Shown here: piece by piece, positions 27,047-53,115 of the stretch
Numbering within the stretch: position 1 is the first letter of the stretch
Layout of the letters: each line of letters begins with the position of its first letter
Source: Minisyncoccota bacterium
GTDB taxonomy: Bacteria; Patescibacteriota; Microgenomatia; UBA1400; PJMF01
NCBI GenBank assembly: GCA_003173865.1
Contig: PJMF01000032.1
Coordinates: forward strand, 1-57,318
Length of the DNA: 57,318 bases
Direction of reading: 5' to 3'
Notes under the pieces: model-generated
What the model saw: only the letters and a program-made list of their open reading frames with translations
The model's database searches: none
Told to the model about the DNA's origin: nothing
Position numbers and translations under genes: made by a program

Positions 27047-27643
27047 TTACTCAACTTCAGCTACGAGTTGCTTTTCAGAAGAACGTCGTGATTTTGAGAC
27101 CAAAAATACGCCGGCGATGATAAAGCTAAGTCCAGCAGCGGCAATCAAATTTTGGCGCGCTGTCCCAGTGTCAGCCAATCCAAGTACTTCACCACCAGGA
27201 TCAGAAATGCCCAATACTGCACCACCGGTACCGCATGTATAGTTTGAGTTGTGTGTCATGTACGGACCAGAGTCTAATCCCCAGAGTTTACCGTCAGGGA
27301 TAAAGACCCAGCCGCTGCGACGTAAGAAGTCAAGGTCTCCATCGCTGTACCCAGTTACATTGAGCCAGTCGGTTTGAATACCGTGACTGTCAGTACCACA
27401 GAAACATTGAGTTGCTTGAGCTTTACCAGAAACACTATAGACAATATCTGTGCCTGTGTGATCTGAGTTACTGCCGGCAATACCGTGATTTCCTTGGCCA
27501 TTAGACGCTAACACTGAGCCATGGGGGGTTTCACACGCTGGAAAGGTAGGAAGAGTCAATGCAAAAGCCGAAGTTGTACTCGCAAGTAACGACACCACTA
27601 AAGTAGCGGAAAAAAGGCTGGTGCGAAGGACTTTATTTCTCAT
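27047..27643 (-). CDS. Secreted protein with C-terminal sortase sorting signal (LADTG)
   Basis: Signal peptide (LRTSLFSATLVVSLLASTTSAFA), LADTG at 27164-27178, hydrophobic helix, basic tail KSRRSSEK. Confidence 0.8.
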   Translation of the reverse strand: MRNKVLRTSLFSATLVVSLLASTTSAFALTLPTFPACETPHGSVLASNGQGNHGIAGSNSDHTGTDIVYSVSGKAQATQCFCGTDSHGIQTDWLNVTGYSDGDLDFLRRSGWVFIPDGKLWGLDSGPYMTHNSNYTCGTGGAVLGISDPGGEVLGLADTGTARQNLIAAAGLSFIIAGVFLVSKSRRSSEKQLVAEVE

Positions 27644-27773
27644 CTTAGGTAACTAATATCCTTCAAGATATAGTTATCGGCCTATTATACGCCCAGAGCG
27701 GCCTATTTGCAACAATCTGTATCATTACTATATATTCAGGCGAATTTGGTTGTCAACTAGGCGTTATACCTTT

Positions 27774-30557
27774 TTAGGCATTAGGATTTGGGGAAGGTTG
27801 TCTTGATTGGAGCTCGGCTTGGGGGATGGCTAAATTTGCATCCATCATGGCTCGTAGCAGATCTGCTTCTGCCGACTCATATCTTGCGTCTAGTCGATTT
27901 CTTTTTGCGGTGAGTTTGTTAAAAAGCTCACGATCAGTCAAAAGTTGATCAATTTCTCTTAAACCTTGTAAAGCTTCAAGCGACTTTTTCTCCTCATCGA
28001 TGAGTGCGGGTAAGTCAAGCAAGGCACGTCCGACGTCCACACGTTGTTGAATCGCACTTATGAAACGGTGAACTGTGAGACCTTGGGAATATTCCCAGGG
28101 AATAAATATATTCGGAAAAGAAAGAGTTCCTTGTAGCCTATCAAAAAAATCTTTTCGTTGTGGGTAATGTCTTCTAACTTTTTGACCTTCTAAAAATTCG
28201 GCAAGATGTTCCTGATCGGGAATTTGCGTTCCTCCTAAACTCCCTATGTGTACTCGACGTATAGAGAGTAATTCCTTCGCTTCTTCGAGTTCACGTTTGT
28301 AAAGCTCAATGTCTGTCGTAACATCCTTAGGAAGGACACTCATTAACATGATCTTTTTTTCTTTTTCTAATAAATTTACATCGTTAGAAAAAAGCTCTGA
28401 AAAAATAGTTTTATCGTCTTGAGTTTGAAGTGCTTTTAGCTCGTCTAACTCTTGTTCAAGATTTAGGACAGTATCTTTACTACGCTTGAATCTACGCAAA
28501 ATTTTTACTCTTCTAGAGAGGTCATTACGAATATAAATGGCATATTTGGTGATTGTATCTTGAGGGTAATGAGCCAGAATGTGTCCTAGTTCCACTTGAC
28601 TTCTGAGGTCGAGTTCCCACTTTGGCTTCGGAAGTGTTCGATCATGGGTGCGAGCAAGTTCTTGCAGATGAGTAAGTTCTTTTAGCACTTCTTTAGATTT
28701 AGAGTTTAGTTTAGCGAGAGCGGGAATACTGTGACCAAATCCGTCCAGAAATTCAAGAGGAGTATCTGGAGTAAGAAAAAGATTCCTGATAAGTGATTCT
28801 AACTTCTTAATTTTCTCTTCCAGCATTCCAATACTGTTATCGTCTTTTGTGTAATCAGAGAATTCGAAGTACTCAGCGTATTCTGGAAATAGACCACTCA
28901 TAATATCGAGAAGGTCCGTGCCATGCTCAGCTTCGCCCCGACTTTGGTTTAAATAATCTCTCTCTTTATCAAGTGACGATTCAACACTGTTAATTCGATT
29001 TCGCAGAGCGACATGAAGGAATTCATGGTAAGTACCTGTACCATCACCGCCTAATATACGCTGCATTTCAGTATTGAGAGCAAAAGCCGTTCTAAGCTGA
29101 TTTATTTGGAACTGAGTTTTTCTTAGTTTCTTCCTTGCCAACAATCTATTCTGATAGACTTCGTTTTTGGATGGTGTCCGAGGAGGAAGTTCCGTTTTGT
29201 CGAGTGACGCAATTTTTGCTTCTAACAAACCTCTCTTCTCTTGATAAGTTGATTTTAAGTTCAAGTAAGAAGTCCATGCTGAGAGGCCATTGAATAAACT
29301 TTTGTTTCTTATTTCTGAATAATCGATTTGCTTAGACTGTTGGACAAGCGTTCGCGCAATAACGAGATCGCGAGGAGAAGGAATACACCACTCTACGTTA
29401 TTACTCGTTAAGACCTTTCCGAAAGTCCATATATGCGCTCTATCAGTAAGAGGTATACCGTGAGGGAGTTCTCGTAATTCTTTACCACTAAACACAAACT
29501 GTGCCCCAAGAACCAAGGGATCAAGTGGCAATAAATCGAAGTTATTTCTCTTTATGACCCAGAAGTCTGGATCTTCTTCTGTGTACTTAGGCAATTGTTC
29601 GATGCTTAACCAAGTTTTGATTTGATTCATAATCTGAGTGACATAGCTGGTTAGGAGTTCTGTCAATACTTTGACTTCTTCGGCTGAATATAAACCTAAC
29701 GCTTGAATAAAAGAGGTTATTCTTTTTTCTACTTTTCCAAGCATTTGTGGATCACGAATGTTTTCTCGACCGAAAGAAATGAGTTGTTGCAATTCTTGGT
29801 CTGAGACAATGAGGGGATTAAAAGTTGGACTCTCTGCTACAAACGAAAGCAGAATTTCTTTGCACAAACCACGTAATACGATGGATTGTTCATGAAGATG
29901 TCGCATATGTTCATCAATGAGTCTTCTATTTGTAATGTCTCCGACGGTGGTATCCACAACTTTGGTAGCGAGATTATATAAAAGAAACTGACGACTTTGA
30001 AATGAGTGTACGACCGCTTTTACTTGAGGAAAAGTAATTTGTAGTGATGTGTATTTCATTTCTTCCAATGCGGCATTCACTTCTTGTAGCGATATGCCCA
30101 AATCATACGCTACTGTTGTGGGCCAAAAGCTTTCTCTTCTCCTCACAACAAGATCTGAAGACGAATCAGAATAATCCGAGTATGTATTCACAGGAAAAAC
30201 TGCGCCTTTACTATATGATCTAAGAATCTGTAGTATCAAACGAGATTGAGTGAGAAAATTGGCGCGAAGTTCTTTTCCTGTTGTGATAGCTTTTTGAGTA
30301 GTATGTTGATTAAGTTTTAGATTTTTTTTTGATAGCGTTGTCCATCCTTCTACAAACATTTGCCAGGTGATTTGTTGTGCGATCTCAAATTTTTTTATAG
30401 TGATGTCGTTTTTAGAAGCATAACTTACTGCAGCGGAGAGAATTACTGCTTTGATATCTTCAGGAAGATTATCGAAATCAAATGTCTCCGATTCTGTATG
30501 AGGATCGGGAGGACTTTGGGGTACAGGTAGCTTTTCGTTACTATTTTTTTTAGGCAT
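27774..30557 (-). CDS. Large soluble hypothetical protein (927 aa), helical/coiled-coil rich
   Basis: Uninterrupted ORF, start adjacent to the stop of the 530-aa gene; no recognised domain. Confidence 0.8.
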   Translation of the reverse strand: MPKKNSNEKLPVPQSPPDPHTESETFDFDNLPEDIKAVILSAAVSYASKNDITIKKFEIAQQITWQMFVEGWTTLSKKNLKLNQHTTQKAITTGKELRANFLTQSRLILQILRSYSKGAVFPVNTYSDYSDSSSDLVVRRRESFWPTTVAYDLGISLQEVNAALEEMKYTSLQITFPQVKAVVHSFQSRQFLLYNLATKVVDTTVGDITNRRLIDEHMRHLHEQSIVLRGLCKEILLSFVAESPTFNPLIVSDQELQQLISFGRENIRDPQMLGKVEKRITSFIQALGLYSAEEVKVLTELLTSYVTQIMNQIKTWLSIEQLPKYTEEDPDFWVIKRNNFDLLPLDPLVLGAQFVFSGKELRELPHGIPLTDRAHIWTFGKVLTSNNVEWCIPSPRDLVIARTLVQQSKQIDYSEIRNKSLFNGLSAWTSYLNLKSTYQEKRGLLEAKIASLDKTELPPRTPSKNEVYQNRLLARKKLRKTQFQINQLRTAFALNTEMQRILGGDGTGTYHEFLHVALRNRINSVESSLDKERDYLNQSRGEAEHGTDLLDIMSGLFPEYAEYFEFSDYTKDDNSIGMLEEKIKKLESLIRNLFLTPDTPLEFLDGFGHSIPALAKLNSKSKEVLKELTHLQELARTHDRTLPKPKWELDLRSQVELGHILAHYPQDTITKYAIYIRNDLSRRVKILRRFKRSKDTVLNLEQELDELKALQTQDDKTIFSELFSNDVNLLEKEKKIMLMSVLPKDVTTDIELYKRELEEAKELLSIRRVHIGSLGGTQIPDQEHLAEFLEGQKVRRHYPQRKDFFDRLQGTLSFPNIFIPWEYSQGLTVHRFISAIQQRVDVGRALLDLPALIDEEKKSLEALQGLREIDQLLTDRELFNKLTAKRNRLDARYESAEADLLRAMMDANLAIPQAELQSRQPSPNPNA

Positions 30558-32149
30558 TAGTCGTCGGTATCAACGCGATAATTGTCTTCTCTGTAATCGA
30601 AGTAATCTTCATCCTCATCGGGTCTTTCAAACCAAGTATCCATTAGCTGCAGGAATAGTGATGCGTTCTCCCAGCCTTTTTTGGCCATCCATTCTAATGT
30701 CGCTTTATTATCCGCAAAAAAATCTTGCTCTTTTATTGCTTTTTTCATCTGTTCAGAAAAATCATCCTCAATGGAGCTTGTGTCCACTTCCTCTAGCCTT
30801 TCCACAATGGTTCCTAAAAGGTAATCAGTCTCTTCTAATAGGCCATGTAGAGTGACAGTTGCTTTCTCTGATTGAGTGTCTTGATTCACTGAAATTCTTT
30901 TTTGTTTGTCTTGTCTAAGATCAGTGATTGCTTTTTTCTTTAAAAATATTTGAAAACAATAAGACTCTAAGTAAGCTAGAGCTTTTTCACCATGGCAAAC
31001 ATCTATATCCGAATTGTAAATGTCAAAGTTTTTTAATGTTGCGTTTACACTAAGTAAATCGCTCATTCTTAGTGCTCGTTGTTGTTCGTGAGGATCTTCT
31101 GAAATCAAGTATTCTGTGACCATTGCCACAATGAAATTTTCCCCATCACTTGAAAAAAGGTTGCCTAACTCGAAGAGTTTTGTCATTCGTAAATTAAAAA
31201 TAGTTTGCGTTATTTCATTAGCATCACGAGCAGTAATAAGTGCACTGATACTAGAGTCGAGAATAACTTGAATTTGGGTGGGATTCTCTCTAAGAAAAGC
31301 AAGAAGAAATAAATGTCCTTGAGGTTTCTGGACAAATCTTCCTGTTACTGCTTCCAACCGAGATGGAAATCCCAATGCATCTTTGGCAGGAGCGAGTTTA
31401 TTTTGTTCTTGAGTTCGGATAACAGCTTTTTTCTTCTTTGGTTGTCTTTCTCTTACAGCTGGCAAATTGTCTGCACTTGTGGGCCGATTTTCATCGGGTA
31501 CATCTTTAATAAGCTGTCGAAAATCAAGCTCTGGAGTTTCAACGATTGTTTGATAAGCTAATGCTACTGATTGAAGTGCGAGTTCTCGCTCAGCTTCACG
31601 CGCTGAAGGGAAATTCCCCTGTCTAGGAAGCCGATCGCGAAAACCATTTTTGACTGCTAAATAAATTAATCTTGCCCTATAACCTCCAAATAAAAGAATG
31701 TTAATTTCTTCTGAATTCTCTGGGAACATTTCCCCTGCACGCTTTATTGCCTCAAAAAGTGTCTGTGGTACATTTTCTTTCTTACTTATTTTTGACTGAT
31801 GCTGCATCATGATGTCGCAATACACAATTGCTGCTAACACTCTACTCATGAAGGTCATTTCTTTAACAGGACTTTGAATAATTGCACAGAGTTGATCTAA
31901 GTGAGCTAATATCTCTTGGCTACTGGATTCTGGAGAAGGATCTAATTCGGTCATAATCCCTTGGAGTTGTAATAACTCAGAATTAACTTGTCCTTGTTCT
32001 TGATCATTAGTAGGTTCGAAAATTTTGGTGGCACGATCAAAATATTTTGAACGTATGTCTTGAATTCTTTGAGGATTCAAATAGGCTTGAAATTGCGCCT
32101 CGAGATTAAGCATGTGCGATCGATGTTCATTTTGATGTGGTGTTGACAT
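30557..32149 (-). CDS. Soluble hypothetical protein (530 aa), very acidic C-terminus
   Basis: Uninterrupted ORF; tail WFERPDEDEDYFDYREDNYRVDTDD; no recognised domain. Confidence 0.8.
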   Translation of the reverse strand: MSTPHQNEHRSHMLNLEAQFQAYLNPQRIQDIRSKYFDRATKIFEPTNDQEQGQVNSELLQLQGIMTELDPSPESSSQEILAHLDQLCAIIQSPVKEMTFMSRVLAAIVYCDIMMQHQSKISKKENVPQTLFEAIKRAGEMFPENSEEINILLFGGYRARLIYLAVKNGFRDRLPRQGNFPSAREAERELALQSVALAYQTIVETPELDFRQLIKDVPDENRPTSADNLPAVRERQPKKKKAVIRTQEQNKLAPAKDALGFPSRLEAVTGRFVQKPQGHLFLLAFLRENPTQIQVILDSSISALITARDANEITQTIFNLRMTKLFELGNLFSSDGENFIVAMVTEYLISEDPHEQQRALRMSDLLSVNATLKNFDIYNSDIDVCHGEKALAYLESYCFQIFLKKKAITDLRQDKQKRISVNQDTQSEKATVTLHGLLEETDYLLGTIVERLEEVDTSSIEDDFSEQMKKAIKEQDFFADNKATLEWMAKKGWENASLFLQLMDTWFERPDEDEDYFDYREDNYRVDTDD

Positions 32150-32152
32150 AAT

Positions 32153-32194
32153 TAAGAGATTCTCTTATCTATTTAAACATAGTATGATATCATA
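32153..32194. promoter_or_regulatory. Divergent promoter/operator candidate with two palindromes
   Basis: TAAGAGATTCTCTTA (32153-32167) and TATGATATCATA (32183-32194) between divergent genes. Confidence 0.5.
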
Positions 32195-32224
32195 GTGGGC
32201 AACATTTAGGCAAAAAAGGAATAT

Positions 32225-33499
32225 ATGCTGAATCGCTTTCCAGATAAAGAAGGATTACGTGACTTCATTCAAGACTCTTTACCAAATATCTCAATAGAGA
32301 AACTTGAATTTACGTTAAAGATTGTAGACGCATATCTCAATCATGCACCACTCACATTAGTAGGATTGGATTTACTAATCACTTTACTGAATGCAGCTGA
32401 GCAAGCACCACAGTTAGTAAGTGAATACGAAGAAGTAAAAAATAAACTAGACTTAATGTGGGCTGAGTTTGAACAAAAGGAACGGAGATATCACGAGTTA
32501 AGTGATCAACGTGATGAAGAACTTCAGAAGAGGAAAAAGAATGAGAAGAATGCTTTCAGTGTGGGTATTCAGGGAATTCCCGCAAACGAAGACCCTGTCG
32601 ATATTGTTGTAATTCAACAACAAATAGATGCATTAACAGCAGAAGCACCGGTATTAAGAACAAAGCTACAGGAATTACAGCAAAAACTTAGCGATATTGA
32701 AGCAAAAATCACGAGGTTAGGACATAATGGCCAATTTGACCAGGAAGAATTTTCTTTAGCAAATTCACCGATTATTAATGATGCTCTCTTAAGAGCAATA
32801 TTGGGTGAGTTCGGAAGAGATGATTTAGAAGAAATGTTCGGAAATCAGTTTTCGATAGCTGCCGATTTTCAACAAAAGATTGGAGGAGGAACACCAGAAA
32901 GCCCTTCAGAGGATAATGGTAATTTGGGAGATAATGAAGATGGAAGTTTAGATGAAAATCCCATCGTTTCCACAACTGCAAATGAGGCGAGCGAGAATCC
33001 ATTTTCAGGAAAAAAAATAAGAGAAGGAGTTCATAGATTTCATAGTTGGAATGAATTATTTAATAGAACTGAAGAAGCTGAGTCATTAGACAAAGATGAT
33101 AGTTTACCGCTAAAAGTGAGACAAGTTTTGACAATGTTAAGACAAAATGAAGACTTTAACCAAGAAGTAATGAGTCGCTTTCCTACTGCAGAAGGAAAGC
33201 CGAATAAAAAACTAAATCCATTTGATCAGGTCCTTTTTGCAACTACACTGACAATGGAGGAACTGAAGGATATTTTCAGTAAAAAAAGTATTACTTCTTT
33301 TGCGACAACTTTATTTTTGATGTACCGTTCTTTCTTTCCAGAATCAGGATATTTTAATCCTGAAGAATTTGAGCCATTGGCTCTCAGCCTAGTAGATAAT
33401 GAAGCTGAAATTGCAAATGGAGTAAAATTATCACTTATTGATAATCCCAACGATCCATATTCGGTTTTGGAGGCGTGGTGGATTTATAGAGAAAATTAA
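32225..33499 (+). CDS. Soluble hypothetical protein (424 aa), coiled-coil plus acidic linker
   Basis: LTAEAPVLRTKLQELQQKLSDIEAKITRL coiled coil; SPSEDNGNLGDNEDGSLDEN linker; SD-like AAGGAA. Confidence 0.78.
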   Translation: MLNRFPDKEGLRDFIQDSLPNISIEKLEFTLKIVDAYLNHAPLTLVGLDLLITLLNAAEQAPQLVSEYEEVKNKLDLMWAEFEQKERRYHELSDQRDEELQKRKKNEKNAFSVGIQGIPANEDPVDIVVIQQQIDALTAEAPVLRTKLQELQQKLSDIEAKITRLGHNGQFDQEEFSLANSPIINDALLRAILGEFGRDDLEEMFGNQFSIAADFQQKIGGGTPESPSEDNGNLGDNEDGSLDENPIVSTTANEASENPFSGKKIREGVHRFHSWNELFNRTEEAESLDKDDSLPLKVRQVLTMLRQNEDFNQEVMSRFPTAEGKPNKKLNPFDQVLFATTLTMEELKDIFSKKSITSFATTLFLMYRSFFPESGYFNPEEFEPLALSLVDNEAEIANGVKLSLIDNPNDPYSVLEAWWIYREN

Positions 33500-34755
33500 T
33501 TGTCTCTATGATGCCAAAACAGATTGAGAAAGAACTCTTTTATCCTAGAAAACAGGCTTTGATTGGAGGATTGTAACGTTACAGTCAAAATTTGCTGATT
33601 TGCTGAGATGCCCGTCAAGTCTGCCGAGATATATCCAGGTGCAGTAATGTGGAGAGTTGTTTCATCGCTGAGATGAGGCAGATGGAAAATACCATTTCCA
33701 TCGGTAGTGGTTTCACGACTATCGGTCTTAATAGTGGCGTTTTGAATAATTTGGTTGCTTTGATCAACGACTATGCCACTGTACAGTTTGGGTGCAAAAA
33801 AACTGTGAATTGTGTCTACTGCCAAGTGAGGTTTACCATTTGCGCTCCAAATCTCTGTTGAGCCCCCCACATTTGTCCAGTAGTTAAGCCCAATTAATTC
33901 GGGAGTTTTAGTGAGTCCTTCAAGGGCATCGTGGATCCACTGCGCCTGCTCGCTATCCGTCATTTTGCCGTGGAGATCAGGGAGCGGTACGCCAAACTCG
34001 CCGAGTACTACTTTGCCGCCACTTTGCTGAGCAATGTCTTTGACATCGCTGATCAATTGATCCGTGGTTGGAACATAATGATCGATAACGACGATTCCTC
34101 CTAAGGACTGAGTGGTTGCGGGATCCATAATCAGTCGAGCTACGTCACCATTCATGGAGTTGTAGTTTGCGTGAACGTTTTTGCCAATTTTTAAGAATTC
34201 GTTCCGCATAATTGCGTACTCATCAATCAAAAATTGACGATGTCCCGCCACATCGTGTGTGTGGCGCGGGTCACCTGGCCCACCGTTTTCGCACTCTGGA
34301 CAAGCACTGAAAATATCTCCATCTTCAAAAAGATCGGGATGAGCGGGAATAAATGCTTTTAAAAGCTCCTTGTGCTGGTCGCGAGTGATTTTAGGAAAGC
34401 TATACCAACCTTCCCAACCACTAAAGTTACCGCGGAACCAGACTTTCAAACCGTGTGCACGTGCAGATTTTACCCAACGTTTCAAAAAGGGAATGAACAT
34501 TTCATCGTACGGAGTTGCGATAGCAATGTGGGTTGCTCCAGTCTGTGCGATTTCGGAAACTTGCTGATTAATTATGGCATCGAATTCCGGTTTCGTTAAC
34601 ATCTCACCAGCTGTGTCACGTGAGTACTTCATGGTATCGATTGATTGGACTTTCCACCACGCGGTGGAAGTGTCTGCGAAAACCCTACTTGGAGAAACAC
34701 AGAAGACGAAGAATGCGATGACTATGGTTGTAAAAATAAAAAAAGTAGTCTTCAT
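33496..34755 (-). CDS. Secreted putative glycoside hydrolase with C-terminal carboxypeptidase-regulatory-like domain
   Basis: Signal peptide; TIM-barrel-like LKVWFRGNFSGWEGW, GKVVLGEFGVPLPD, LIGLNYWTNVGG; C-terminal YSGIVVDQSNQIIQNATIKTDSRETTTDGNGIFHLPHL. Confidence 0.7.
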   Translation of the reverse strand: MKTTFFIFTTIVIAFFVFCVSPSRVFADTSTAWWKVQSIDTMKYSRDTAGEMLTKPEFDAIINQQVSEIAQTGATHIAIATPYDEMFIPFLKRWVKSARAHGLKVWFRGNFSGWEGWYSFPKITRDQHKELLKAFIPAHPDLFEDGDIFSACPECENGGPGDPRHTHDVAGHRQFLIDEYAIMRNEFLKIGKNVHANYNSMNGDVARLIMDPATTQSLGGIVVIDHYVPTTDQLISDVKDIAQQSGGKVVLGEFGVPLPDLHGKMTDSEQAQWIHDALEGLTKTPELIGLNYWTNVGGSTEIWSANGKPHLAVDTIHSFFAPKLYSGIVVDQSNQIIQNATIKTDSRETTTDGNGIFHLPHLSDETTLHITAPGYISADLTGISANQQILTVTLQSSNQSLFSRIKEFFLNLFWHHRDN

Positions 34756-35849: not shown

Positions 35850-36767
35850 TTATAACTTCGTTGAAGAAATGACGTCCCACGTTGGTGAGTTTGACGTATG
35901 TGTCGTGAGTGCTTTGTAATGTGAGTACACACCGAGTAAAAAAATAATGATGCATCCCGAAGGATTCTTGAGTGTTTCGATGATAATCGCTTTGAGGTAC
36001 ACAAGTGATGGTTTCCGAAAGTGTTTATCTACGAGTGTGCCAAATTTTTTTCTTAAAATAAAAATGTCTGAGTTATTGCGTGAGTTCCAGTTCACGTAGT
36101 CTTTCACTGTGCGTGGGAAGTGAAAGTAAACTTGGGCCGACCGTACGTGTTTGTACAGAAAGTGATTTTGCACACACGAAAAAAAGAGAAAGGCATCAAC
36201 ATTTGCCATTTCTTTGTAATCGTTTGGGAAGTGAATACTTTGAATGAAGTCACGGGAAAAAACTAAAAACTTCCCATCACAGCTCCATTTATTATTCCCT
36301 TCATCAATTGAGTAGCGTACGCGTTCATATGCACGAAACGTTGACACTCCAGCTGCTTCGATGAGTGTTTGTGGATGAGTGGGCTGAGGATTTCCACTGA
36401 CTAAGCCGACTTTTTTGTTCTGAAATGGTTTAATAACTTTTTGTAAAAGCGAGTGATCACTAATCTTAATATCATCATTCAGTAAAACGAATAACTCACT
36501 TTTTGAGTGATGCAGCATTTCCACTAAACCTCTTGCCATTCCACCACGCACACGATTATCAATGACGTTGACGCGTGGATCTTTGAGAGAACGTGCAGTT
36601 TGCACGGTGTTATCACTGCACGCGTCGCAGTACACAATCACTTCTTTGAGTACATACCCAACTTCCTTCTGAGCAAGAACTGCTTTTAAAAGTTCGGCAA
36701 TGTAACTGCCCGAGTTATATGCGGGAATGCCGACCGAAAGTGTGAGCGGTTTTGTTTGTGCTGTCAT
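35850..36767 (-). CDS. Glycosyltransferase family 2
   Basis: LSVGIPAYNSGSYIAELLKAVLAQ...LNDDIKISD. Confidence 0.88.
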   Translation of the reverse strand: MTAQTKPLTLSVGIPAYNSGSYIAELLKAVLAQKEVGYVLKEVIVYCDACSDNTVQTARSLKDPRVNVIDNRVRGGMARGLVEMLHHSKSELFVLLNDDIKISDHSLLQKVIKPFQNKKVGLVSGNPQPTHPQTLIEAAGVSTFRAYERVRYSIDEGNNKWSCDGKFLVFSRDFIQSIHFPNDYKEMANVDAFLFFSCVQNHFLYKHVRSAQVYFHFPRTVKDYVNWNSRNNSDIFILRKKFGTLVDKHFRKPSLVYLKAIIIETLKNPSGCIIIFLLGVYSHYKALTTHTSNSPTWDVISSTKL

Positions 36768-38392
36768 AGACTTTTATCAATAAAAAGAGGTTTGGTTTGC
36801 AGTTGCGGGACGTACTCTGGTTTTAATTCGTAGATGTCAGCGAATGGATAAGAATCCACTAAATTATATTTATCAATCGCTTCCGATTTTTTAACGAGCT
36901 TAAATGTTTGATCGTTGAGGTCATTGGTACGCATGACAATCCAACGTGCCCAACGGTCAGGATCTGAAGTAGCACTCAGCCAGTACGTACCGGTTCCTTC
37001 ATGAATGAATTTTTTCATTGGAAGACCTGAAGAAAAAATGATTGCATCATGCGAAGCAGCAGAGATGAGAATAAAGCCATTTTTGTCCGCAGTATTATTA
37101 TGTAACCACGTACTGACTTCGGTCACATTTTTTTGACTTGACCCCACACGACCGTCATCAATCGTAACGGCATCCTTACTCACAAACTGAAACACAGTGA
37201 CAAAAATAAAAATTCCAATAATCGTCCATTGCAACGGTTTCAACCGTTTCAATAAATAGCCCGCAAATACAGCAAATGACGGAATCATCATAATTCCATA
37301 CCTCACGTTAAACCACGTATTTCCATTAATATTTTGAACGAAAAGTACAGAGTGTCCCAAATACAATGCCAGAATATTGAAAATCAGTGGTGCAGTCAGC
37401 GCAGTTGTGGCAACCCGAACTCTCAGTGGAATTTTTTTATCTAACCAAAGAACAACGGCTCCAATCATGCCCGCTGTTAAAGGAAACATGCCACTGTTAA
37501 ACACCATTGCGTACCAATAGGTTTGTAACGAAATCCATAAATTGTGTTTGGTGAGCAAGACCCCGGCTTCGGCGAGTTGATCTTGCTGAGCATGAGCGGA
37601 GTATGGCCCAAATGCGAAGTACAACGGGTCTTTAAAAATTGCTGCATTCCATAAAAACCATAAGAAAATACCAAATCCACCGAGCGTGCAAAATAAAATA
37701 AAAACCCCTTCACTCATTTTGTACCCTTTTCGACTCCACGCACGAATCACGACTAAAAGAGCGGTATACAGAAATAAAAACCATCCATCGTAGCGCACTA
37801 AGGTAGATAGCATGATCCAAAATGCAGATTTAATTAAGCTGAGAATGTCCTCTTTTTCGTGATAATTAATGAGTTCAAAAACACCTGCCGTAGTTGTGGC
37901 AATGAGGAGAAGTTCAGTCATGGCAGTTGACTGCAAATATAAAATATTTAAGTTCAAAACAAACACAGCCACACCAAACACACGGCCCAACATTCCGACT
38001 TTGAGTTTTTCCAAAATTTTGTAAATTAAGATGCCAGTGACCACAAATGAGATCATTGACTCTAGTGCACCAGCCAGGCCAGAATGCCACATAAAGTCAT
38101 TCCAAATGGTGAATGCCATTAAAATGTGGGGAAGGGGAAGCCAGACACTTCCCAGCTGTGCTAGTCCCGGCTTCAAGCCTTCGACAACACGTCGACCAAT
38201 ATCTAAATGTGAACGGGCGTCGTTGTAGGCAAGTCCTAAACCATTTTGGTAAAAATAAATCCAGTAACGAATGGAGATGGCAACCAGCACCAGCGTAATA
38301 ATAAGCAACGCATGACGTTCCAAAAACGTTTGTGCTTTTCGCAGCGGAGCGCTGGGAAGAGAAAATGAAAGTTTAAACGTTGGTATGTTCAT
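36764..38392 (-). CDS. Polytopic GT39-like membrane glycosyltransferase
   Basis: LAYNDARSHLDIGRRVVEGLKPGLAQLGSVWLPLPHILM; many TM helices. Confidence 0.78.
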   Translation of the reverse strand: MNIPTFKLSFSLPSAPLRKAQTFLERHALLIITLVLVAISIRYWIYFYQNGLGLAYNDARSHLDIGRRVVEGLKPGLAQLGSVWLPLPHILMAFTIWNDFMWHSGLAGALESMISFVVTGILIYKILEKLKVGMLGRVFGVAVFVLNLNILYLQSTAMTELLLIATTTAGVFELINYHEKEDILSLIKSAFWIMLSTLVRYDGWFLFLYTALLVVIRAWSRKGYKMSEGVFILFCTLGGFGIFLWFLWNAAIFKDPLYFAFGPYSAHAQQDQLAEAGVLLTKHNLWISLQTYWYAMVFNSGMFPLTAGMIGAVVLWLDKKIPLRVRVATTALTAPLIFNILALYLGHSVLFVQNINGNTWFNVRYGIMMIPSFAVFAGYLLKRLKPLQWTIIGIFIFVTVFQFVSKDAVTIDDGRVGSSQKNVTEVSTWLHNNTADKNGFILISAASHDAIIFSSGLPMKKFIHEGTGTYWLSATSDPDRWARWIVMRTNDLNDQTFKLVKKSEAIDKYNLVDSYPFADIYELKPEYVPQLQTKPLFIDKSL

Positions 38393-39920
38393 AGATGATC
38401 AGAGCGAGAAGTCCGAGCGCAATAACGCCGGTGACTCCATAGAAAAAATTAAGGTATTCTTGAACGTTCATGTACTTTGCAGCAAAGAGATGATAAATGA
38501 GCGAGCTTGATGTTCCTTGTTCCACGAGGCCAATATTGTAGGTATACGTGAAAGGAATTGGTTTATTTAAACTCTCGGCTTCTACTTTTGGTGGAATCGA
38601 GTTCGTGGTCATGACACCTAAACCATTCACATACACGCTATACGCGGCAAGGATGATGAAAGCTGCCAGTACCAAGAAGTCTCGTCGGAAGTGTGTGACT
38701 GCTTTGCCAATCCCAGCACATGCAACTGCAGTTGCTGGGATCAAGTAACGTGGCCCAAACGCCCAACCACCCCAAGGATCACTAAACATCGAGTACGTCA
38801 TGAGATCAACTAAAATGATCGCAATCAAGTTGACTGCAAGAGGTTGGGTTTCTTTTTGTCGAAATGCAAGCCATAGCCCAATAAGTCCAATAATGACTAC
38901 CGGACTGTAGTAAAACCATCCGCGTTCATCACTGATAAGCAGTAGGTAGAGACCTAAAAGTTGTCGCCTCGTACTAAAAGGTGAAGCAACTGATGACTCT
39001 TTTTGATTTTTATCCACATTTTGCTGCTCTTCTCTGCGCTGCTCCGCGGCGTCAATTTGTTTTGCAAGATCGGATTGAAATGCATCTGCCCGGCCAATGG
39101 TCTGCCCAAGCATGGTAAATGAGTGAGTTGTCAAATAATTATAGTAACCAAAAAGCGCAACCATTGGTAACAATCCGATTGCTAAACCAATGACACTGAG
39201 TGATAGCGAAAACTTGATTTTTTCTCCAATATGGTGGAGCTCAAAGTGTTTCCACGTTACATATATCACGAGTGGAAAGGCGAGAAAAATATTTGGAATG
39301 TCAAGTAAAATGCCCACACCAAACAACACGCCGAACATGATATTTCGCAGGAAACTTCGTTTTTCAATGCTATTCAATACCATCAATAAAATAAACGTCA
39401 CGCTCATGTGATGTTGAGTAAATGTCATTGAGTACGGTAATGCATTTGTGGCAAATAAGAAAAGAAAGCCACTTAGTAAACTCGTATAAAAACTTGCTCC
39501 TAAACGGTACGCAACTCTCGCAATTAAAAATACATTGAAAATTGCAAATAGATTAATCGTGAAGTAAGCAAATAATTGTGGAAATCCGACTACTTTACCC
39601 AATGCATAAAAAGGTGCCGCAATGACTGAAACTCCAGGAGTAAAAATCGTAAAGTACTTGCCATTAAACTGCACTAAATCAGGTGACGCGAAAGCGGCCA
39701 ACTCATCGTTGAGAAATATCGTGTGATTATCGACAAGTGCTTCGGTTAGGGCATAGCGAGAAGTTGAGTTAGAAGCTTCGTACGGTCCACTGACCTGAGT
39801 GTTGTGACCAGTTTGATACGCGATGCCGGTGCCTGTGGCACTTTTATCACCTTTCACGGCGAGACCAAGCAAAAGGACCAGGCTTACGAAAAAGATGAGA
39901 CAGAAAATGCGTTTGATCAT
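38373..39920 (-). CDS. Polytopic membrane protein, GT39-like
   Basis: Signal anchor and about 10 TM helices; overlaps the next gene by 20 bp. Confidence 0.75.
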   Translation of the reverse strand: MIKRIFCLIFFVSLVLLLGLAVKGDKSATGTGIAYQTGHNTQVSGPYEASNSTSRYALTEALVDNHTIFLNDELAAFASPDLVQFNGKYFTIFTPGVSVIAAPFYALGKVVGFPQLFAYFTINLFAIFNVFLIARVAYRLGASFYTSLLSGFLFLFATNALPYSMTFTQHHMSVTFILLMVLNSIEKRSFLRNIMFGVLFGVGILLDIPNIFLAFPLVIYVTWKHFELHHIGEKIKFSLSLSVIGLAIGLLPMVALFGYYNYLTTHSFTMLGQTIGRADAFQSDLAKQIDAAEQRREEQQNVDKNQKESSVASPFSTRRQLLGLYLLLISDERGWFYYSPVVIIGLIGLWLAFRQKETQPLAVNLIAIILVDLMTYSMFSDPWGGWAFGPRYLIPATAVACAGIGKAVTHFRRDFLVLAAFIILAAYSVYVNGLGVMTTNSIPPKVEAESLNKPIPFTYTYNIGLVEQGTSSSLIYHLFAAKYMNVQEYLNFFYGVTGVIALGLLALIIYEHTNV

Positions 39921-47454: not shown

Positions 47455-47997
47455 ATGAAAAAACTTCCCCTGATCCTCGGTATTATCTGCATCGTTGCTG
47501 GCATCAGTTTACTGGCCTATCTGGCTGTGGATCAGTACTTTGTCCAGCAGACGCTGACACTCTCTCAAGCGGAGGTGGCTCAGTTATCTTTAAATAAGCT
47601 TAGCATCGCCCCTTTGCCGAGCCATGTTTTTATTGATAAATATGTGAATGTCGACGTCGAGCCACTTATAATTAAAAATCAAAAATGGGCAATTTCGAAG
47701 GATAAAGCCACGTATCTTTACCAGTCAGCTCGACCAGGTGAGCCAGGAAATATTATTATTTACGGCCATAACTTGCGCAATATTTTTGGTCCTATGAGAT
47801 ATGTTCATCTGGGGGATGTGGTGATCGTGACTACTGCAGATGGAAGAGAACATCAATATAAGATTGTTTTACTCAAGGAAGTTTCGCCGCGAGACACCAC
47901 ATTTTTATTGCCAACGCGCACTGAGACTTTAACAATGTATACCTGTAGTGGCTTTCTCGATAGTCGACGGTTTATTGTTCGGGCTGAGGCGTTGTAG
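47455..47997 (+). CDS. Sortase (class E/D-like)
   Basis: N-terminal TM, IIIYGHNLRNIFGPM (His), TLTMYTCSG (Cys), RRFIVRAE (Arg). Confidence 0.88.
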   Translation: MKKLPLILGIICIVAGISLLAYLAVDQYFVQQTLTLSQAEVAQLSLNKLSIAPLPSHVFIDKYVNVDVEPLIIKNQKWAISKDKATYLYQSARPGEPGNIIIYGHNLRNIFGPMRYVHLGDVVIVTTADGREHQYKIVLLKEVSPRDTTFLLPTRTETLTMYTCSGFLDSRRFIVRAEAL

Positions 47998-51903: not shown

Positions 51904-53115
51904 ATGAATTATCTTGAACTTTTTATCTCTGCAATTACGGCACTGCGCGGCAATATGTTGCGTACTGCATTGACGATGCTTGGTATAGTGATTGGAATCG
52001 CATCAGTCATTTTAATTGTTTCGCTTGGCCAAGGTGCAAGTGAATCAATTACTTCCCAAGTTTCTTCGTTGGGAACAAACTTAATTTTCGTGATTCCCGG
52101 TACGCAGACGCCCGGTCGTGTTTCTGCAACGAATACGCTGACTTATGCTGACGCGCAAGTGTTGGCTGATAAAAATCGTCTCGGAAACGTGAGTGATGTT
52201 TCTCCCCAAGTGAATGTCACTGCCGAGGTGGTTGCGAATGGTCAGAGCAAACGGACTGCGATTCAAGGTGTAAGTTCAGCGTATCAAGCAATTGGTTCGT
52301 TAGAAATGGATCAAGGAGAGTTTATTACTCCGGAAGATGAAAATGTGTATGCGCGCGTCGCGGTACTTGGGCCACAAGTTGTGACTGATCTCTTTGGTGA
52401 AAACTTTAATCCGATTGGCCAAACAGTGACAATTAAATCTCTCTCGTTTCGTGTGGTTGGAGTGACCAAAGTGAAAGGCAGTACGACGTTTTCAAATCCT
52501 GATGAAACAGTGTATGTCCCAGTGACGACGGCAATGAAGATGCTTGCTGGGCAAAATTTTGTGCAAGCGATTAGTGTGGAAGCAAAAGATGGTCAAAAAA
52601 TTGATCAGACGATGGATGATATTAAAAATATTTTACTCGATCAACATAAAATCACTGATCCCGCGTTAGCAGATTTTACGATTAGAAGTTCCAAAGATGC
52701 GTTATCGATTTTAAGTGGCATTACGGGAGTGCTCACGGCCATGCTCGCAGGTATTGCGGCAATTTCTCTGGTAGTAGGTGGGATAGGCATCATGAACATT
52801 ATGTTGGTGACTGTGACTGAGCGCACGAAAGAAATCGGTTTGCTGAAAGCAATTGGAGCGCGCCACAGTGATATCTTGATGCAGTTTTTAATTGAGGCCG
52901 TAGTGTTGACAATTTTAGGTGGATTGGCCGGGATTATATTGGGAATCTCGTTGGCTTTTTTGGTGACACGCTTTGCACCTATTCCATTTTTGGTGCAACC
53001 TATGTCGATTCTAGTTGCAGTTGGTGTGTCCACGATCGTGGGAATTGTTTTTGGTCTGTATCCAGCGCAGCGCGCGGCGAAACTTTCACCGATCGATGCG
53101 CTGAGGTATGAATAA
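51904..53115 (+). CDS. MacB/FtsX-type ABC transporter permease
   Basis: ALRGNMLRTALTMLGIVIGIASVILIVSLGQGA...GGIGIMNIMLVTVTERTKEIGLLKAIGA. Confidence 0.95.
   Translation: MNYLELFISAITALRGNMLRTALTMLGIVIGIASVILIVSLGQGASESITSQVSSLGTNLIFVIPGTQTPGRVSATNTLTYADAQVLADKNRLGNVSDVSPQVNVTAEVVANGQSKRTAIQGVSSAYQAIGSLEMDQGEFITPEDENVYARVAVLGPQVVTDLFGENFNPIGQTVTIKSLSFRVVGVTKVKGSTTFSNPDETVYVPVTTAMKMLAGQNFVQAISVEAKDGQKIDQTMDDIKNILLDQHKITDPALADFTIRSSKDALSILSGITGVLTAMLAGIAAISLVVGGIGIMNIMLVTVTERTKEIGLLKAIGARHSDILMQFLIEAVVLTILGGLAGIILGISLAFLVTRFAPIPFLVQPMSILVAVGVSTIVGIVFGLYPAQRAAKLSPIDALRYE

What the first reader, a model, noticed from the sequence alone, without database searches (positions are those of the whole stretch)
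27774..33499. Three-gene block of large soluble orphan proteins (927 + 530 / 424 aa) around a compact divergent promoter
Three consecutive long ORFs show no motif I can assign. All lack obvious TM or signal segments, are rich in charged helices or coiled coils, and have acidic linkers or tails. The 530 and 927 genes are translationally coupled (the stop of one adjoins the start of the other); the 424 gene is divergent with only 75 bp between. The block (about 5.7 kb) sits between cell-surface/glycan genes, and its architecture suggests a multi-protein cytoplasmic complex of unknown function. This is the strongest candidate in the window for an undescribed system, but no function is demonstrated by the sequence.
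Basis: partly seen in the sequence, partly recalled or inferred. Interest (0 to 1): 0.75.

Follow-up and report, generated by a model that had tools for sequence, protein, structure and literature searches.

The report
Orphan three-gene insert in surface operon
In one small-genome bacterium, a 5.7-kb block of three real but unrecognisable cytoplasmic protein genes sits between two cell-surface genes that are direct neighbours in its relatives, so it is a lineage-specific inserted gene set whose job cannot be read from the sequence.

Summary
Three long intact ORFs exist: A927 (27774-30557, -), B530 (30557-32149, -) and C424 (32225-33499, +). B530's stop and A927's start overlap (TAATG), and the divergent gap is 75 bp. 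None has a TM segment or a credible family match.

The main new result is synteny. In all nine relatives that carry both flanking genes on one contig, the glycosidase-like gene (33496-34755) is followed within 0-145 bp by the LAxTG surface-protein gene (27047-27643). In the window those two genes are 5,852 bp apart, and the gap holds the block plus the surface gene's own ~130-bp upstream region. The block is therefore best read as a lineage-specific insertion into a conserved surface-glycan operon.

No homologue was found in several hundred genomes of the phylum, or in viral, phage or plasmid collections; the sub-threshold hits I followed up were chance. That refutes a conserved system, not an accessory cassette. 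Two perfect palindromes in the 75-bp gap suggest shared regulation.

I commit to an accessory cassette encoding a cytoplasmic complex, most likely of the conflict/defence/mobile-element class. That functional class is weakly supported (about 0.3).

The parts
27774..30557 (-). A927: 927-aa orphan soluble protein, start overlapping the B530 stop; single HExxH (HEFLH, residues 511-515)
   Evidence: no family match
30557..32149 (-). B530: 530-aa orphan soluble protein with an acidic C-terminal tail; first gene of the B530-A927 operon
   Evidence: no family match
32150..32224 (.). 75-bp divergent promoter region with two perfect palindromes, TAAGAGATTCTCTTA (32153-32167) and TATGATATCATA (32183-32194)
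   Evidence: the only one of 70 divergent gaps in the held genome with two separate palindromes of arm >=6
32225..33499 (+). C424: 424-aa acidic protein with a coiled-coil stretch, acidic linker and C-terminal domain
   Evidence: only coiled-coil matches
33496..34755 (-). Right flank: glycosidase-like gene with CarboxypepD_reg tail, conserved in relatives (insert boundary)
27047..27643 (-). Left flank: LAxTG-type surface protein gene, directly next to the glycosidase-like gene in nine relatives (insert boundary)
27644..27773 (-). Upstream region of the surface-protein gene, with promoter-like sequences, retained on the left side of the insert
27771..27784 (.). 14-bp direct repeat (TTTTTAGGCATTAG) over the A927 stop; identical copy at 30547-30560 over the B530 stop/A927 start
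   Evidence: some 14-mer repeat occurs in 16.5% of shuffles, so possibly chance

Best explanation
The block is an accessory three-gene cassette, unique among the genomes searched, inserted between two genes of a conserved surface-glycan/sortase operon. SHOWN: three intact coupled/divergent ORFs; flanking genes adjacent in relatives; no detectable homologues; no recombinase, terminal repeats or target-site duplication. INFERRED: B530 and A927 are made together and probably bind each other, and C424 is co-regulated through the shared palindromic promoter region, so the three form one cytoplasmic assembly. INFERRED AND WEAK: the cassette belongs to the conflict/defence/mobile-element class of sporadic, fast-evolving cargo genes, with A927 as the large (possibly metal-dependent, HExxH) component and C424 as a coiled-coil partner or sensor.
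For: Empty-site synteny in nine of nine informative relatives, with intergenic gaps of 0-145 bp against 5,852 bp here. No homologue in 88 relatives, 380 genomes across the phylum or, for A927 and B530, 177 of the class, nor in viral, phage or plasmid collections. GC3 of the block is at the 12.5, 5.4 and 2.8 percentiles of the genome, like other low-GC3 stretches whose genes read as accessory. TAATG coupling. Two palindromes in the divergent gap, seen in 1 of 70 such gaps.
Against: Codon usage is ordinary (percentiles 16, 35, 53), so composition does not itself prove recent acquisition. No transposase, integrase, terminal repeat or target duplication was found. No enzymatic or defence domain is detectable, and the surroundings are glycan genes, not a defence island. 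The sortase that follows the surface gene in relatives lies elsewhere here (47455), so the locus is generally rearranged. Complex formation is untested.
Confidence: 0.5

Rival explanations
1. Native but very fast-evolving lineage-specific genes with a structural or housekeeping role (for example a cytoplasmic scaffold) that were relocated into this operon by rearrangement; homologues exist in relatives but have diverged beyond recognition.
For: Codon usage fits the genome. The locus is rearranged in other ways (sortase at 47455). The proteins are helical and charged without enzymatic motifs.
Against: Neighbouring operon genes keep 30-66% identity over the same distances, so divergence beyond detection would need to be exceptional for all three genes at once. 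No trace in 41 genomes of the same family.
Confidence: 0.22
2. Remnant or cargo of an unknown virus or mobile element of these bacteria, so the genes serve the element and not the cell.
For: Insert at a site empty in relatives. Orphan proteins. Weak PHROG coiled-coil matches of C424.
Against: No capsid, terminase, replication or integration gene; no hit in viral, phage or plasmid collections. Genes are intact, not decaying.
Confidence: 0.15
3. A regulator or assembly factor set working with the adjacent surface-glycan/sortase genes.
For: Position inside the surface operon.
Against: Nine relatives run the same operon without it. The block has its own divergent promoter region, and the surface gene keeps its own upstream region. 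No signal or TM segment.
Confidence: 0.08
4. Assembly or binning artefact: foreign DNA joined into the contig.
For: The block is absent from all relatives; the genome is a 32-contig draft.
Against: Codon usage is that of the genome; both junctions leave complete flanking genes and a complete upstream region.
Confidence: 0.04

Closest known systems
Accessory ORFan islands / cargo cassettes in variable loci of bacterial genomes
   Same: Sporadic, intact, operon-organised genes of unknown family at a site that is empty in relatives; slightly low GC3
   Different: No mobility gene or repeat found; only three large genes, with a divergent promoter layout
Multi-gene anti-phage systems with large helical components (Lamassu LmuB, Druantia DruC in PADLOC)
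   Same: Weak coiled-coil-only profile matches for C424 (E about 6e-4 to 8e-4); sporadic occurrence
   Different: No Walker A, nuclease, helicase or other defining domain in any of the three
Type I-F Cas8f
   Same: A927 residues 679-765 match 89 positions of the Cas8f profile at E 1e-4
   Different: Charged helical segment only; no Cas protein was recognised among the scanned neighbours; treated as chance
Zincin metallopeptidases (HExxH)
   Same: A927 has one HEFLH at 511-515, with Glu at 542 and 544 as possible third ligands (spacing compared from memory with M2/M3/M32)
   Different: No peptidase family hit even at E 10 on the fragment; chance occurrence 0.03

Membership tests
Lineage-specific genomic insert | Empty site in relatives | tested here: met
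   9 of 9 relatives with both flanks on one contig have them adjacent
Lineage-specific genomic insert | Atypical composition | tested here: inconclusive
   GC3 low (percentiles 12.5, 5.4, 2.8) but codon usage ordinary; 19 of 558 gene triples have all three genes at GC3 <= 0.32
Lineage-specific genomic insert | Mobility gene, terminal repeats or target duplication | tested here: not met
   many genomic islands lack these, so this does not exclude insertion
Known anti-phage defence system | Match to system-defining proteins (PADLOC) | tested here: not met
   only coiled-coil or charged-helix matches at E 1e-4 to 1e-3; no defence island among the neighbours scanned
Lamassu / SMC-type complexes | Walker A ATPase | tested here: not met
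   no [AG]xxxxGK[ST] in any of the three
Zincin metallopeptidase | HExxH motif | tested here: met
   HEFLH at A927 511-515, chance about 0.03
Zincin metallopeptidase | Family-level sequence or fold similarity | tested here: not met
   sequence; the fold could not be tested without an alignment
Phage or plasmid module | Homologues in phage, viral or plasmid records | tested here: not met
Conserved three-protein system of this phylum | Co-occurrence and synteny in relatives | tested here: not met
Multi-protein complex | Physical interaction of A927, B530 and C424 | not testable with these tools
   no multimer prediction; single-sequence models fail

The most novel reading that the evidence does not exclude
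A previously undescribed three-protein cytoplasmic conflict system (HExxH-bearing large subunit A927, partner B530, divergently expressed coiled-coil C424 under a shared palindromic operator), carried as a portable cassette by small-genome bacteria and placed next to surface-glycan genes.
Probability: 0.1. Interest if true: 0.75.

Novelty: new member of a known kind. Interest (0 to 1): 0.33.

Why it matters
Large intact orphan gene sets that drop into otherwise conserved loci are where unknown defence, mobile or host-interaction systems tend to be found. Showing the empty site turns 'three unknown proteins' into a defined insertion with known boundaries that can be traced in other strains. On present evidence it is still an ORFan island, a common thing in such genomes, with no mechanism shown.

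Tried and rejected
(1) Weak relatives: G072 is the C-terminal part of an ORF reading as DnaG; G448 is an ORF reading as phenylalanyl-tRNA synthetase beta; G121 is a short frame beside ribosomal-protein and EF-G genes; G096 is a low-complexity coiled-coil protein; G523 lies over an unrelated ORF. All rejected as chance: hundreds of genomes were searched at a per-genome E-value limit of 0.01. (2) Paralogues in the own genome: none. (3) Single-sequence AlphaFold2 of the C424 C-terminal domain (pLDDT 53) and of a possible winged-helix segment, A927 88-205 (pLDDT 48): uninformative, so the helix-turn-helix idea is not supported. (4) Cas8f, LmuB, DruC, Taxilin, SMC and ClpB matches: confined to charged or coiled-coil helices. 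(5) Target duplication or terminal repeats at the insert ends: none. A 14-bp repeat like the one around A927 arises in 16.5% of shuffles. (6) RNA families in the block: none. (8) Literature searches gave nothing on such a block.

Full report
What is there. The ORF listing reproduces the three genes exactly: A927 27774-30557 (-), B530 30557-32149 (-), C424 32225-33499 (+). The B530 stop and A927 start share one base (GACGACTAATGCC). The divergent gap is 75 bp. C424 and the next gene (33496-34755, -) end tail to tail with overlapping stop codons. None of the three proteins has a hydrophobic segment that could span a membrane. C424 has a coiled-coil stretch around 60-177, an acidic linker and a separate C-terminal domain; B530 has an acidic tail; A927 has several short coiled-coil-like stretches.

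Not a known family. Pfam, NCBIfam, PHROGs, PADLOC and PDB sequences give only sub-threshold matches, mostly on coiled-coil or charged helical stretches. No Walker A motif is present; A927 has one HExxH motif, HEFLH, at 511-515. Such a motif appears in 3% of shuffled A927 sequences, and no peptidase family matches even at E 10, so it is a lead and not a finding.

No relatives. The proteins were searched in 88 relatives, of which 41 are of the same family, 380 genomes spread over the phylum and, for A927 and B530, 177 of the class. These sets overlap. Only chance-level matches came back. The wide pattern scans of viral contigs and of about 85,000 prokaryote genomes would find close relatives only, and C424 was not scanned in the genome collection. 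tblastn against phage and plasmid records found nothing. There is no paralogue in the 1.06 Mb of the own genome that was fetched.

The block is an insert. I located the homologue of the glycosidase-like gene 33496-34755 in relatives and read its neighbourhood. In all nine relatives that hold both genes on one contig, it is followed directly (0-145 bp) by a homologue of the LAxTG surface protein 27047-27643, and then by a sortase. In the window the same two genes have the same order and orientation but are 5,852 bp apart, and the gap is the three-gene block plus the surface gene's own upstream region of about 130 bp. Insertion into an existing operon is the simplest reading. One further relative (G066, 7% contaminated) has other genes after the glycosidase. 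In the window the sortase sits at 47455, so this locus has been rearranged more than once.

How old, and how it came. GC3 of the three genes is low (0.31, 0.28, 0.26; percentiles 12.5, 5.4, 2.8) but codon usage given amino acids is ordinary for the genome. This fits acquisition some time ago, or a donor of similar composition, and argues against contamination. I found no recombinase, terminal repeats or target duplication. A 14-bp exact direct repeat brackets A927 precisely (27771-27784, 30547-30560). Some such repeat occurs in 16.5% of shuffles, so only its placement is striking, and that was noticed after the fact.

Regulation. The 75-bp gap has two perfect palindromes, TAAGAGATTCTCTTA at 32153 and TATGATATCATA at 32183; the latter carries a -10-like TATGAT on each strand. 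Of 70 divergent gaps of 30-250 bp in the held genome this is the only one with two separate perfect palindromes of arm six or more. A shared operator and coordinated, possibly autoregulated expression is a reasonable inference; no binding has been shown.

Mechanism. Shown: an intact three-gene insert, one operon plus one divergent gene, orphan in sequence. Inferred: a cytoplasmic assembly of B530 with A927, co-regulated with C424. Weakly inferred: membership in the broad class of conflict, defence or mobile-element cargo, because such genes are typically sporadic, fast-evolving and placed in variable loci (general knowledge, not tested here). No catalytic part is demonstrated. Structure prediction, which might have been decisive, failed for lack of an alignment.

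Verdict. The useful outcome is the defined empty site.

Noticed in passing
27047-27643, 33496-34755, 36764-39920, 47455-47997; relatives L021-L026, L028-L030: A conserved surface module: glycosyltransferase-type genes, a glycosidase-like protein with a CarboxypepD_reg tail, a small secreted protein ending in a VLG...LA[DSTA]TG-TM-basic tail, and a sortase next to it in nine relatives; in the window the sortase is separated from its likely substrate gene.
   Followed up: partly
36764-38392: 542-aa protein with no Pfam match but 55-66% identical in most relatives that carry the glycan operon (35% in the most distant one): a conserved unknown of this surface locus, and a better candidate for a shared function than the orphan block.
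   Followed up: no
14-148: A 71-base unit repeated 1.9 times (89% match) over and just beyond the tRNA-Pro gene (1-75) at the contig start, which may be a second tRNA copy or fragment.
   Followed up: no
51904-53115: 403-aa protein with a match (E 1e-13) to a PADLOC CARF-LolE-TM fusion model, beside an HlyD-type membrane-fusion gene (49951): most simply a MacB/LolE-type export permease.
   Followed up: no
L029:9801-10808 and L030:8741-9727: In two relatives the glycosidase-like gene ends early, before the carboxypeptidase-regulatory-like tail; a stop codon lies inside the matched stretch (TAA and TAG).
   Followed up: no
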